The notes under the pieces: model-generated
Seen by the model: the letters and a program-made list of their open reading frames with translations, nothing else
Databases searched by the model: none
Told to the model about the DNA's origin: nothing
Made by a program: the position numbers and the translations under genes
Assembly: GCA_902984215.1 (NCBI GenBank)
Contig: CADWAF010004036.1
Coordinates: 1-28,585, forward strand
DNA from: Willaertia magna
Taxonomy: Eukaryota > Heterolobosea > Eutetramitea > Acrasida > Naegleriidae
Direction: 5' to 3'
DNA length: 28,585 bases
In this document: positions 67 through 6,141 of the stretch, in pieces
How the letters are laid out: every line of letters begins with the position of its first letter
Position numbering within the stretch: position 1 is the first letter of the stretch

Positions 67-3000
67 CTAATTACACTCTACGTAAATAATTAATTCTATT
101 ATAGTTTCAATACTATTTTGTGGTGAATAAAAATGAATGGATTGTATATTTCTTATTCCAATAGAATTGCCCATACCCATTAAGAATTTTAAAGCAAGCA
201 CAAATTTCTTTAAATTTGTTTTCAATACATCACTTGTAAAACAAAAGTAAAATTTTGAGTTGTTTTTAAAATTATTGATATTTAAGTGAGATGTAAAATT
301 ACCATCATTATGGAATATTATAATCTTATTATCTTGTTGTTGCATAGAATCTAATGTGTTAATAACATTATTAAATGCCTCACTTCTTTCATGATCAGAT
401 GGTATTAATTCACAAATTTTATCTAGTTTGTTTTGGTCTTCGTTAATCAAATCATATAAATACAATAAAGTATTATTATTATCCATACTTATTTTAATTG
501 GGTTATTCATTTTGGATAAAAAGTATTGTTGACTTTTTAAACAATACAATCCTCTTTCTCTACATAAATATTCAAATTCAATGTCTTCTTGATATATTCT
601 GGCTGGGAAGAAAGCTCTTTTTTCACATGTTGCCCTCACATTTAATAAAAAGAAAGAACAAATAGTGTGACTTTGTATGAATGGATGATAATTTAAACTA
701 GAGTTATACCTATAGCCATCTTTTCTAATTCCAATCATTGCTATATTATGTTTTCCAGATGTAAACTCATTAATTGGGTCATTCCACACTAATGGCTCTT
801 GTTTTGACTTCTTTGTAAAGTTAGATGGATTAATATTAGTAGTATTGTTATCAACTATTGATAGAATTGGTTGTTCATCAAACACTATAGTTTCAATATG
901 TTTCATAACTTCAAACATTGAACAAGTCACTTTTTGCTTTTGATTAGTAAAATCTATCTTTTCAAAATGATGACAAGTATCATCTATCATCCAAATGAAT
1001 TCCAAACCAAAAGCAAATGCAAGTAATTGAATAGCTAACCTGGCAAATCCTATTCCATTAATACAGTCCCTTAAAGTGCAAGCATTTTGATTTCTGAACT
1101 CTATTTCCTCAATTAATTTATTTTCATTTAAATATGGGATAATATTATTAGATTGAATTTCATTTGGTAAAGACATTATTATAAAATAGTTCCCCAAAGT
1201 TTCTACATATGTATCAAATTGTTCACCATCCCTTACAACAATAACTTGGCCATAAGTCCCACTTTCCATACTATCCAAAAAGAATAATCCTCCAGCACTT
1301 CTATTATGAGAAGGCATAAATATCCAATTTTTAATATTTTTATCATCTAATTTATGCATACCATTAATTTCAGAATTATCGTTAAACTTAAAAAGGGAAA
1401 CAAAGTTGTTTGGTATTGAAAATCTTGGTTTGGAAGAAGGAAAGAAAGTTTGAAACATTGAGTATTCCACTAATTGATAAACTTTACTTTCTGACCTATT
1501 ACGCAATACTTCAGATGTCAATCCTCTATTTATATATCTATTATCCAAATAGTTCAAAGAAATGTTGGTTGGATTATTTTTGGTTGTGTTAGTTACACTT
1601 TTAATAATATTTCTACCCTTTTCAACAATCAAACTTTTACTACCACTATTACTAGAATGTATAGAATCATATAATTCTATAAGTCTTCCGTCAAACGTTA
1701 AAATTGTTTTTTCATTTACTTCTACCTTATTTCTTAGTTCATTAATTTTATGTAAATAAATATTTGAATTTAAAGAAAGAGATTCTATTAAAGAAATTTC
1801 TTTAACAAAGAAAGAATACCAATTTGTTGATGCTTTTTCTAAACTATCAAATATATCTTTTCTAGTTTTTAAAACTAATTTACCATATTTTCCAGGTGTT
1901 AATTCTTCATAAGCAGGCACTTTTTGTTTGATAATGTTTAAATGATAAGGCAATAACCATTCTAATGGTGAATACTCTTTGTCTGATATTATAATATCCT
2001 CATTGTCACATACATCATTTATTTCTTCATCTATGCCTAAGGAAAATCTATTAAATGCAATGTCACTCTTTAATCTTTCTAAAAAATGTAAAAAGCTATC
2101 TGTTTTACCAATTTGAGGTTCAGCAAATAATAATATTCTATTTCTATGAGTCTCCTTTTGACTTATATTTCCATTTGGTGCTCTACTATAATCATAACTA
2201 GGCGGTGATGGATCTTGATTTTTACGACGTCTTCCTCCAACAGCCCTCATCATTCTTCTACATGTTGTAATAATATTCCAATATTTTTGCGCTTCTAAAT
2301 TTTTTTGTTTTACAATATACTTATCTAATTTCATGTTTGTATTAATGTAAGAATCACTAACATTACTTGATTTCTTTAAATCTTTAAAAACAGAACCTGG
2401 AACTAAAGCGATTGGTTTTTCTTCATCATCTGAAATATATCTACACAATCTACCAAACTCCTGAGTAAATGAACTGTAATTTGGTAAACCATCTCCTTTA
2501 GCTCTCATATCTAGACAATTAAAACTTGATGGAAATGTATCACCTTGTCTGCCTTTTTGTACTAATAATAATATGCAAGGAAAATTATGAAGATTAATAT
2601 ATTCTAAACTTTTCTCATCTTTAGTAAGTTTAGTTGAATCTTTTAAAAACTTTTTATATGAAGTTTCACTAAGTATCTTCTCTGCCAATTTTAATCTTGT
2701 GACAACACTTAATTGATCTAAATTTAATGCTTTTTCTCCTGTATCAATTAAAATATCTGGAAGAATAAAGGAATTATTTTGTAAAGGTAAAAGTTGTGAA
2801 ATTGAGTATTTTAACATGTTATATACAGAAATAGCGTATTCTTGTGATGTAATTCTAATTATTTTCATATTTCCCTTAAGTTTACCTTCGATTTTACATG
2901 AATTTAATAAATTTTCAACCACTAATTTGGTATAACTATTGTTTTCATTTGAACTTATTTTGTTTATTGCCTCATTAAATAAATTTATTACCAATGTCTC

Positions 3001-6000
3001 TTTTTCTTTTAATAATTTTGTTACTTCTTCTGATTTAGTTTTAATAAATTTAATTAACTGTTCCTTTTTTTCTTTCTTACTACTTGTTTCTTTCTCTTCT
3101 GATGGATCTATGTAATCTTTATCATCCTCCTTTTCCTCGCTTTTATTTGATAATTGATTTAATTTTGAAGCAAATTGTGATTTTTGTTGACCTTTAGTAT
3201 TGGTTATTATAAAATTAAATAAATAAATAACTTTAGAAAGCGTAATTTGTGGTAATAAAAATTTTGAAATCTGTTTTATATTATCAATTTCTATAAATTT
3301 TGTATAAAATTCATTTACTTTTATATCTCCTTTCAAGTATAAATAAAACAATAACCAAAAATGATAATCCATAGCTAATAAAAGAGGTCTCAATATCATA
3401 GATACCTTATTAACTTTTCCTAAAAGTTGTTCAAAAGGTTTATCTGATTTGATTAAAGAATTATCAGTAGTAATTGTATTCACATAATCTTGTTTACTAA
3501 AATATTTTTTTCTATTTGGTTTTTCTTCATCTTTTTTCAATTCAGTATTCTTTTGCACAGTATTCCAACTAATTACATTTAATTCTTCATATAAAGTTGC
3601 TCTTCTAAAATTCCAATCATCTATTTTATAAATTTTATTTTCTGTATCATTTTCTTTTTTAAAGAAAATTTCCCAGCGCACTGAATCATATAATTCTACT
3701 AGTGTATTTTCTTTTAAATTATCTAACGCTTTCTTTAAAAAGAATTGACTAGTAGATTTCTTAATTTTTGAGTTATCTCTTTTTTCAATTTTATATTTCA
3801 CATAAATACTAGGATCTGATACTTTTTTAATTATATCCCCCTTTTCCCTCAAAATTAATTCACCAACCTCGAACCCCTTATCAAGTAATTCTTTTATGTA
3901 TCCTAACTCTTCTACAGTTTGTAAATAATTATTTTTATCTTTTTCTGTTATAAAATATATTTCATTATTTTCAATATTTGAATTCACGATATCACTTTGT
4001 TTAATTAAGTAACCAATTGGTTTTCTTTTAAAGTTGGTATTATGGACTGTAATGATAGTATCTTTTGAAATAGTAATTTCATTATTAGAACTATCTTCCA
4101 AACATCTTAAGTCATTCTTTACAATATATCTTTCAGGTATATTAGAGTCAATTGAAAGAACATTATAAGGAGTTGCACTAACCAATAAAACAAATAAATT
4201 ATCAGCTTCTTTCAAAATAGACCCATTATTTTCACTATCATTAACTATTTTATCATGTGCCTTTTCTTTTGTTATTGCATAATGACATTCATCAGCGACC
4301 ACAACAAACAATGTGGAACTTTCTTTTTTAACTCTTTCCCTAAACTTTTGATAGTGTGGAATATGTTTATCGAAATACTTAATAGCAATTTTTTTAATAT
4401 CCTTTTTTTCCGTTATAAAAGGTAATAATTCTGTTTGCTTTAATCTTTTGACATTTTGATCCCATAAAGTGTTTTGGTTGGGACTGCAAATTAAAAAACT
4501 TAATTCTGTAAATTGTTTACATCTTTCTTCTCCAATAATCTCCCTTAATCTCTTAAAAAGTTCAAATGAAATAACTCTTTGTTCAAAATGAACGTGACGT
4601 GATGCCAATTTAATTTCAATCTTTCCTTTAAGTTTCTCCAAAGAAATAACAGATAGCGGTATAGATATATTGCATTCAATCTTTTTACGTGTTAAATCCT
4701 TATTTAATAAAACAAAAGATTGTATATCTAATAATTTAATGTATAATTGTGAAACGATTACTGATTTGCAAAAGTTATCATCAATGACATTCTCATATTC
4801 TTTACTTATTGAAATATCCAAATTGGCCAAAAATTGTTGACTTATCTTATTTCCTTCAAGTGCACTTATATTTAAAATAATTTCATACGGCACTTGCGCT
4901 TCGTTCTCTTTACTTCTACTTGTAGATTCTTCTTCTTCTTTAATTTCCTCTTCTTCAACTTCTGATTGTTGATTTAGAAGAAAATATAAATACTTAGCAA
5001 TTTCCACATGCACTTCTTTTTCTTGAAATCGAACATTTATCTCAGACTCATTAAATTCAAAATCTAATCCACACTTATTAGATATATTTAATTGAAAAGA
5101 TAAATTAAGTGGAATTTGATTCTTTGGATCTAAGCTTTGGGAAATAGCACCATCTATAATACTAATAAAATCTTGAAATGAAATCATTTCTTTTTGACTT
5201 CCTATATAAATGTACAATTGAAAAGCGAATTGATAAAACCTATCTTCTGATGAAATCACATTATTAATATTATTTCCATTATTATTTCCAGTCAAGTAGT
5301 GAAATAATTTATTACCATTTAAAAGTATTGTTTGATCGTCACCCTCTGAAGACTGAATTAATTCTTCATCAACAGTAATATTGTTATTATTTAAAGAATT
5401 ATTACATTTAAATTTTAAATAAATAGATGAATCTTTAGAATAAGTTTGATCAAAAACCCTTGTAAGTAGTTCATCATTTGATAAAGAAATATTATTGTTC
5501 ATTATATTATTTATAAAAGGAGAAGAAGATAGTTCACCACTCAATGAAAATGAATCTGAAGGTGTTAATAATCCATCATTACTTCTTTCCGAAATAAAAG
5601 AAGTTGCTACACTTGAAGGAGTACTGGTATTGCTATTAGTATTATGAATTGCATTATTAATTAATAAAGAACTAGTAGCAATATTACTGGTATCTACTTT
5701 AATATTACCTAACTTTTGTTTTTTTTCTTCCTTTTCCGTTGTTTTGTCCTTCTTCTTTTTTCTCTTTTTTTCGGGAGAAGATGATGTTAATACTGAACTA
5801 TTGCTAGCGGTGGTAGATGTAATTGAAGATGATTGATTACGAGGATTGATACCTAAAGCATTAGCACATTCTTTACACTTACAAACACTAGAACAACCTT
5901 TTCCACTAGAGACGCAAGGACATTTTCTAGTCTTACAACCAGATTTACATTTACATGAGGTTTCGGAACTACTTTTTGTACCAGTAGAAGAAGTGGTATT

Positions 6001-6141
6001 ACTAGGTTGAGAAAGGGTTATTGGATTGGTATTATTCTTTGATTTATTTTCACCATTGTTTTTGTTATTATTAACAACAGAAGGTGACAAAGAAATATTA
6101 TTATTGCTAACTCCTTTCGATATCTCTTTATTAGCTGACAT
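67..6141 (-). CDS. CXC domain + circularly permuted SF2 helicase + TAGT/GREB1-like glycosyltransferase (2,024 aa)
   Basis: Single-exon gene. Residues 63-92 hold a CXC (tesmin-like) zinc domain with nine Cys followed by Asn94, then a basic nuclear signal at about 124-143. A motif Ia-like segment lies near 551-562, motif II DECH at 617-620 and motif III SATP at 655-658. Motif V KGRQGDTFP starts at 1196 and motif VI QEFGRLCR spans 1227-1234. Walker A AEPQIGKT comes last, at 1340-1347. Motif I after motif VI is a circular permutation, the arrangement described for vertebrate GREB1. The region at about 1600-1870 looks like a GT-A glycosyltransferase: FMPSHNR at 1608, a conserved-looking GIGFARLAIQ helix, FIWMIDD with Asp1720-Asp1721 as a probable metal-binding DxD-like motif, and QED with Asp1853. 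From family knowledge this matches TAGT, the TET-associated glycosyltransferase related to base J glucosyltransferase. Inference: a nuclear enzyme acting on modified DNA bases or chromatin proteins. The start follows an A-rich leader. Low-complexity Asn/Ser linkers and a charged segment (about 1010-1070) separate domains. Confidence 0.8.
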   Translation of the reverse strand: MSANKEISKGVSNNNISLSPSVVNNNKNNGENKSKNNTNPITLSQPSNTTSSTGTKSSSETSCKCKSGCKTRKCPCVSSGKGCSSVCKCKECANALGINPRNQSSSITSTTASNSSVLTSSSPEKKRKKKKDKTTEKEEKKQKLGNIKVDTSNIATSSLLINNAIHNTNSNTSTPSSVATSFISERSNDGLLTPSDSFSLSGELSSSPFINNIMNNNISLSNDELLTRVFDQTYSKDSSIYLKFKCNNSLNNNNITVDEELIQSSEGDDQTILLNGNKLFHYLTGNNNGNNINNVISSEDRFYQFAFQLYIYIGSQKEMISFQDFISIIDGAISQSLDPKNQIPLNLSFQLNISNKCGLDFEFNESEINVRFQEKEVHVEIAKYLYFLLNQQSEVEEEEIKEEEESTSRSKENEAQVPYEIILNISALEGNKISQQFLANLDISISKEYENVIDDNFCKSVIVSQLYIKLLDIQSFVLLNKDLTRKKIECNISIPLSVISLEKLKGKIEIKLASRHVHFEQRVISFELFKRLREIIGEERCKQFTELSFLICSPNQNTLWDQNVKRLKQTELLPFITEKKDIKKIAIKYFDKHIPHYQKFRERVKKESSTLFVVVADECHYAITKEKAHDKIVNDSENNGSILKEADNLFVLLVSATPYNVLSIDSNIPERYIVKNDLRCLEDSSNNEITISKDTIITVHNTNFKRKPIGYLIKQSDIVNSNIENNEIYFITEKDKNNYLQTVEELGYIKELLDKGFEVGELILREKGDIIKKVSDPSIYVKYKIEKRDNSKIKKSTSQFFLKKALDNLKENTLVELYDSVRWEIFFKKENDTENKIYKIDDWNFRRATLYEELNVISWNTVQKNTELKKDEEKPNRKKYFSKQDYVNTITTDNSLIKSDKPFEQLLGKVNKVSMILRPLLLAMDYHFWLLFYLYLKGDIKVNEFYTKFIEIDNIKQISKFLLPQITLSKVIYLFNFIITNTKGQQKSQFASKLNQLSNKSEEKEDDKDYIDPSEEKETSSKKEKKEQLIKFIKTKSEEVTKLLKEKETLVINLFNEAINKISSNENNSYTKLVVENLLNSCKIEGKLKGNMKIIRITSQEYAISVYNMLKYSISQLLPLQNNSFILPDILIDTGEKALNLDQLSVVTRLKLAEKILSETSYKKFLKDSTKLTKDEKSLEYINLHNFPCILLLVQKGRQGDTFPSSFNCLDMRAKGDGLPNYSSFTQEFGRLCRYISDDEEKPIALVPGSVFKDLKKSSNVSDSYINTNMKLDKYIVKQKNLEAQKYWNIITTCRRMMRAVGGRRRKNQDPSPPSYDYSRAPNGNISQKETHRNRILLFAEPQIGKTDSFLHFLERLKSDIAFNRFSLGIDEEINDVCDNEDIIISDKEYSPLEWLLPYHLNIIKQKVPAYEELTPGKYGKLVLKTRKDIFDSLEKASTNWYSFFVKEISLIESLSLNSNIYLHKINELRNKVEVNEKTILTFDGRLIELYDSIHSSNSGSKSLIVEKGRNIIKSVTNTTKNNPTNISLNYLDNRYINRGLTSEVLRNRSESKVYQLVEYSMFQTFFPSSKPRFSIPNNFVSLFKFNDNSEINGMHKLDDKNIKNWIFMPSHNRSAGGLFFLDSMESGTYGQVIVVRDGEQFDTYVETLGNYFIIMSLPNEIQSNNIIPYLNENKLIEEIEFRNQNACTLRDCINGIGFARLAIQLLAFAFGLEFIWMIDDTCHHFEKIDFTNQKQKVTCSMFEVMKHIETIVFDEQPILSIVDNNTTNINPSNFTKKSKQEPLVWNDPINEFTSGKHNIAMIGIRKDGYRYNSSLNYHPFIQSHTICSFFLLNVRATCEKRAFFPARIYQEDIEFEYLCRERGLYCLKSQQYFLSKMNNPIKISMDNNNTLLYLYDLINEDQNKLDKICELIPSDHERSEAFNNVINTLDSMQQQDNKIIIFHNDGNFTSHLNINNFKNNSKFYFCFTSDVLKTNLKKFVLALKFLMGMGNSIGIRNIQSIHFYSPQNSIETIIELIIYVECN

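What the first reader, a model, noticed from the sequence alone, without database searches (positions are those of the whole stretch)
67..6141. GREB1-type permuted helicase joined to a TAGT-like glycosyltransferase in a protist
Helicase motifs occur in the order Ia (about 551), II DECH (617), III SATP (655), V (1196), VI (1227), I AEPQIGKT (1340), so motif I has moved behind motif VI. A glycosyltransferase-like domain follows. This is the arrangement reported for vertebrate GREB1, whose glycosyltransferase is related to the TET/JBP-associated (base J) enzymes. A free-living protist version, in a lineage where TET/JBP dioxygenases are known (Naegleria), would point to an ancestral role in modified-base glycosylation.
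Basis: partly seen in the sequence, partly recalled or inferred. Interest (0 to 1): 0.9.

Follow-up and report, generated by a model that had tools for sequence, protein, structure and literature searches.

The report
Amoeba GREB1-like helicase–sugar transferase
A free-living amoeba carries a full-length relative of the animal protein GREB1, a rearranged helicase motor joined to a sugar-adding enzyme, in a genome that also has DNA-methylating and TET-like genes, so it might make sugar-tagged DNA bases, which can be tested.

The parts
67..6141 (-). whole GREB1-like gene, 2024 aa, single open frame
5857..5961 (-). Cys-rich CXC (tesmin/TSO1-like) segment, residues 61-95; candidate DNA-binding element
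   Evidence: Pfam TCR E 0.0047, below its cut-off; 14 of 30 identical to the N-terminus of the Owenia homologue P0005; the pattern was found in 3 of 124 proteins, P0001, P0002 and P0005
2068..4596 (-). circularly permuted SF2 helicase module, residues 516-1358
   Evidence: Pfam PF20692; SF2 matches of the structure model
4282..4293 (-). motif II DECH, residues 617-620
4168..4179 (-). motif III SATP, residues 655-658
2533..2556 (-). motif V KGRQGDTF, residues 1196-1203
2437..2463 (-). motif VI QEFGRLCRY, residues 1227-1235
2101..2124 (-). motif I (Walker A) AEPQIGKT, residues 1340-1347, placed after motif VI
   Evidence: predicted strand-loop-helix 1335-1367
532..1332 (-). TAGT glycosyltransferase domain, residues about 1604-1870
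   Evidence: Pfam PF20691, PHROG 842, structure matches
976..984 (-). DXD-like motif, here DDT, residues 1720-1722 (third residue Asn in 118, Ser in 1, Thr in 1 of the 120 proteins that cover it; the Thr is this protein)
583..588 (-). conserved Glu-Asp, residues 1852-1853, candidate catalytic pair (Glu in 116 of 119, Asp in 117 of 118 covering)

Best explanation
A nuclear GREB1-type enzyme. The permuted SF2 module (and perhaps the N-terminal CXC segment) binds and moves along nucleic acid using ATP; the attached GT-A domain then transfers a sugar from a nucleotide-sugar donor to the hydroxymethyl group of a pyrimidine made by a Tet/JBP-like dioxygenase (5mC to 5hmC, or T to 5hmU). Shown here: domain identity, permuted motif order, kept catalytic motifs of the helicase, GT-A fold nearest to phage TAGTs among viral models, and DNMT1-like plus Tet-like genes in the same genome. 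Inferred: ATPase and transferase activity, nuclear location, the acceptor, the sugar.
For: Domain identity. Walker A Lys and Thr in 123 of 123, motif II Asp in 114 of 114 and Glu in 112 of 114 covering rows, motif VI arginines in 123 of 123, GT Asp-Asp in 120 of 120 covering rows. Among viral models the GT domain has 8 matches at E <= 1e-3: three named TET-associated glycosyltransferases, one Klebsiella phage beta-glucosyl-HMC-alpha-glucosyltransferase, one Bodo saltans virus protein, three unnamed; the Klebsiella phage gene lies directly behind dCMP hydroxymethylase. Match to that phage family (PHROG 842) is stronger for the amoebae (2e-8, 6e-7) than for Owenia (1.6e-5) or Montipora (0.0073). 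Tet-like ORF matching NgTet1 at E 1.4e-11 and a DNMT1-like gene, type judged by eye, in the same genome. Base J, a glucosylated hydroxymethyl base, is made in kinetoplastids (PMC11065753, passages), which are also Discoba (recalled).
Against: No substrate or activity evidence at all. Third residue of the DXD-like motif is T here and N in 118 of 120, not the D of the phage enzyme and of the second amoeba TAGT. By Pfam TAGT the order is reversed: Owenia (1.1e-14) scores better than the amoebae (5.8e-9, 1.1e-9). PMC11065753 (passage) says JGT homologues in metazoa were predicted inactive, and PMC6163654 (passage) says the GREB1 helicase has no catalytic activity. N. gruberi showed no 5hmC by Nanopore (PMC12344493 section 7). 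Human GREB1 is reported as a protein O-GlcNAc transferase. The re-ordered-sequence test did not improve the Willaertia match to ResIII. Tet_JBP matches stay below the Pfam cut-off, 0 of 5 above it.
Confidence: 0.48

Rival explanations
1. The GT domain glycosylates nuclear proteins (chromatin or transcription factors), as reported for human GREB1 on the oestrogen receptor; the helicase module only tethers it to chromatin.
Against: Of the 8 viral-library matches at E <= 1e-3, 4 are named TET-associated or HMC glucosyltransferases, 1 is an uncharacterised Bodo saltans virus protein, 3 have no name; that library holds viral proteins only. Tet-like and DNMT1-like genes are present.
Confidence: 0.34
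2. The protein is a catalytically dead scaffold, kept for nucleic-acid binding.
For: A review states that the GREB1 helicase has no catalytic activity, another that metazoan JGT homologues were predicted inactive; DDN/DDT replaces DDD.
Against: Motifs I, II, III, V, VI and the GT residues R1614, R1701, D1720, D1721, E1852, D1853 are nearly invariant over deeply diverged relatives.
Confidence: 0.1
3. The gene came to heteroloboseans from an animal by lateral transfer and says nothing about ancestry.
For: Patchy distribution in the searches made here.
Against: Willaertia and Naegleria form their own pair (SH-aLRT 100), split with P0004 from the 25 other rows, which hold all the named annelids and corals in the tree (SH-aLRT 99) (midpoint root, quick method, long-branch warning for P0004).
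Confidence: 0.08

Closest known systems
GREB1 family (Pfam PF20692 cpSF2-GREB1 + PF20691 TAGT)
   Same: Same two modules in the same order, same permuted motif order, same conserved GT residues as the annelid and coral members
   Different: Heterolobosean host; N-terminal CXC segment found in 3 of 124 proteins; DDT instead of DDN; no vertebrate GREB1 sequence was obtained for direct alignment
Phage TAGT / beta-glucosyl-HMC-alpha-glucosyltransferase (PHROG 842)
   Same: GT domain sequence and predicted fold; P-S-x-x-R, VVR, G-x-x-R and (L/I)DD aligned; the Glu-Asp pair was matched by eye only
   Different: Phage enzyme is a stand-alone 280 aa protein with DDD and sits beside dCMP hydroxymethylase
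Base J glucosyltransferase (JGT) of kinetoplastids
   Same: A PMC4111573 passage gives TAGTs as candidates for the base J enzyme and GREB1 as the mammalian orthologue; that JGT is a TAGT is recalled
   Different: No JGT sequence was available here; not compared
Type I restriction translocase HsdR and other SF2 translocases
   Different: Motif order; HsdR rows start at chain residues 261-272, behind position 220 (recalled as its Walker A lysine), but rows of other helicases start earlier and a range shows only its ends, so this is a hint, not a test

Membership tests
GREB1 family | cpSF2-GREB1 domain above curated cut-off | tested here: met
   330.2 bits against 26.2
GREB1 family | Walker A placed after motif VI | tested here: met
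   same in 123 of 123 proteins, window included, though the search region that found most of them spans these motifs
GREB1 family | P-loop packs into the RecA1 sheet beside motif II | tested here: inconclusive
   Model shows strand-loop-helix at 1335-1367 but coordinates are not readable; re-ordered sequence raised the ResIII score for P0013 (23.2 against 17.3 with motif I shuffled) and P0014 (21.0 against 16.0) but not for P0001 (18.7 against 19.3); one shuffle each
GREB1 family | TAGT domain C-terminal to the helicase | tested here: met
   36.6 bits against 27.5, residues 1607-1740
GREB1 family | nuclear receptor co-regulation (vertebrates) | not testable with these tools
   no expression or interaction data
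TAGT glycosyltransferase | GT-A fold | tested here: met
TAGT glycosyltransferase | DDD metal motif of the phage enzyme | tested here: not met
   DDT here, DDN in 118 of 120 proteins covering the column; DDD in phage PKO111 and in the second amoeba TAGT
TAGT glycosyltransferase | sugar transfer to 5hmC or 5hmU | not testable with these tools
   needs biochemistry
TET/JBP pathway in the same genome | Tet/JBP-like ORF with the ligand residues of NgTet1 aligned | tested here: met
   L012 3151-3813 residues 52-162 align to NgTet1 212-319 at E 1.4e-11 with H, D, H and R in register (ligand roles recalled); Tet_JBP stays below its Pfam cut-off and the N-terminal half of NgTet1 is not matched; L011 lacks the first His and the Arg

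The most novel reading that the evidence does not exclude
Heterolobosean amoebae make a sugar-capped hydroxymethyl base (glycosyl-5hmC or a J-like base) with an ATP-driven, permuted-helicase glycosyltransferase; the cap hides 5hmC from current Nanopore models and is read as methylation by EM-seq and bisulfite, which would explain why N. gruberi shows 5mC but no 5hmC. GREB1 in animals then descends from a DNA-modifying enzyme.
Probability: 0.25. Interest if true: 0.88.

Novelty: new member of a known kind. Interest (0 to 1): 0.58.

Why it matters
GREB1 is a hormone-receptor cofactor whose enzymatic role is unsettled. A diverged protist version with kept ATPase and transferase motifs, in a genome with DNMT1-like and Tet-like genes and in an amoeba that grows axenically (PMC11702301, passage), gives a clean system to ask what GREB1-type enzymes modify, and supplies a concrete, testable reason for the missing 5hmC in Naegleria.

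Tried and rejected

Considered and rejected: unrelated P-loop at 1340 (it is inside the Pfam family block and kept in 123 of 123), bacterial contamination (Naegleria orthologue, matching Willaertia protein), transposon (one cpSF2-GREB1 gene; neighbours look like ordinary host genes by eye).

Limits: most compared proteins came, whose region holds motifs V, VI and I, so conservation there is biased by selection; motifs II, III and the GT residues lie outside it. 120 of 202 hits were listed; P0002 was dropped from the counts as a near copy of P0001. By precomputed labels 23 of the 120 carry no TAGT label (my count), though only 3 of 123 have gaps at the Asp-Asp columns. G000 is 19.2 Mb while PMC6892926 (abstract and outline) gives 36.5 Mb for W. 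magna c2c maky, so absences are weak. The presence of the gene in N. gruberi was not tested. Iyer et al. 2013 and Shin et al. 2021 were not read. Searches (GREB1 + Naegleria; GREB1 + evolution + protist) found 0 papers in the held library, which lacks most subscription papers, so prior description is not excluded.

Full report
What is there. The finding is the minus-strand ORF 67-6141 of the window, 2024 aa without interruption. The window is contig 620 of a 19.24 Mb, 894-contig genome. A Willaertia magna protein (ABK040_005548) is identical except for 27 extra residues near its N-terminus (98.68% over 2051 columns; 100% over residues 500-2024); a Naegleria lovaniensis protein is 41% identical over 59% of that stretch. 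Willaertia is a heterolobosean in Discoba.

Domains. Pfam gives cpSF2-GREB1 ('circularly permuted SF2 helicase found in GREB1 proteins') at E 4.4e-98 and TAGT at E 5.8e-9, plus a weak CXC match (E 0.0047, below cut-off) at 61-95. The phage family PHROG 842, beta-glucosyl-HMC-alpha-glucosyltransferase, matches 1607-1836 at E 2e-8. The genome search finds one cpSF2-GREB1 gene and two TAGT genes.

Motif order. The quoted residues are right: DECH 617, SATP 655, KGRQGDTF 1196, QEFGRLCRY 1227, AEPQIGKT 1340; Ia near 551 by eye. Among 123 proteins (the window's and P0003-P0124), motif I lies behind motif VI in 123 of 123 and the Walker A Lys is kept in 123 of 123; motif II Asp in 114 of 114 and Glu in 112 of 114 rows that cover it; motif VI Arg 1231 and 1234 in 123 of 123. 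Most were found with a region spanning V-VI-I, so only motifs II, III and the GT residues are a count free of that bias. In the GT domain Asp1720 and Asp1721 are kept in 120 of 120 covering rows; the third residue is Asn in 118, Ser in 1 and Thr in Willaertia.

Pathway in the same genome. Tet_JBP gives 5 weak matches, none above cut-off, but ORF L012:3151-3813 matches NgTet1 at 1.4e-11 with its H, D, H and R in register (ligand roles recalled), and searching with it finds 10 places, 6 of them with stops inside. A DNMT1-like gene, in pieces that suggest an intron (the main match holds 2 stops) and with a BAH-like upstream ORF, lies on C319, and a Dnmt2-like ORF on C456 (types judged by eye). 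The second TAGT, on C191, is fused to a GTPase (MMR_HSR1 6e-7; IRG and dynamin models match below cut-off) and has DDD.

Function. Best-supported reading: an ATP-dependent nucleic-acid module carrying a nucleotide-sugar transferase for hydroxymethylated pyrimidines. The phage relatives, the Tet-like and DNMT1-like genes and the conserved motifs support it; the acceptor is inferred. The amoeba domains match PHROG 842 better than Owenia or Montipora do, but Owenia matches Pfam TAGT better than the amoebae do, so closeness to the phage enzymes is not settled. Against the reading stand the altered DXD motif, the report of human GREB1 as a protein O-GlcNAc transferase (cited in PMC10446492, passage read), the statement that the GREB1 helicase has no catalytic activity (PMC6163654, passages) and that metazoan JGT homologues were predicted inactive (PMC11065753, passages). 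The coral and annelid proteins seen here keep the residues counted, so those residues give no reason to call them inactive, apart from the DDN.

An open question it touches. PMC12344493, section 7 read in full: N. gruberi has 5mC by EM-seq, bisulfite and Nanopore, yet no 5hmC by Nanopore despite TET-like enzymes; the authors suggest transience, further oxidation, thymine or RNA as target. Sugar-capped 5hmC would count as modified in the first two methods and be outside the Nanopore model (inference). That section does not mention glycosylation. Whether N. gruberi has this gene was not tested.

Distribution. Searches find this family in two heteroloboseans, in annelids (4 of the 120 listed bear annelid names), in corals (14 of 120), in 102 of 120 rows without an organism name, and in a metagenomic WD40 fusion (P0004). 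The tree (28 rows, quick method) sets Willaertia and Naegleria together at SH-aLRT 100, split from the 25 rows with the named animals at 99; the placing of the long-branched P0004 beside them is unsafe.

Noticed in passing
L010:1535-5209 (G000:C191): A second TAGT (1224 aa) with a DDD motif, fused behind a GTPase domain (MMR_HSR1; weaker IRG and dynamin matches); possible defence-type protein (PADLOC LeoBC 7.8e-10).
   Followed up: partly
L012:3151-3813, L011, L013 and loci L021-L025: A family of Tet-like ORFs, one with NgTet1-like ligands, others lacking them or holding stops; L012 lies beside a 789-aa ORF without Pfam match, so it may be element-borne.
   Followed up: partly
proteins P0007-P0124: cpSF2-GREB1/TAGT proteins seem multiplied in corals: 3 from one Oculina contig, 4 from Stylophora, at least 2 from Acropora muricata; many unnamed rows are long single ORFs, some with ankyrin repeats.
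   Followed up: no
P0004: Metagenomic 3027-aa protein joins WD40 repeats to cpSF2-GREB1 and TAGT.
   Followed up: no
P0005 residues 1-45: The annelid Owenia homologue starts with a CXC segment like that at residues 61-95 of the amoeba protein.
   Followed up: partly
A0A2H4UV75: A Bodo saltans virus protein resembles the TAGT domain in predicted fold.
   Followed up: no
window 6020-6035, residue about 38: The W. magna ABK040 protein has 27 extra residues here (81 bases, in frame); strain difference or unspliced intron.
   Followed up: no
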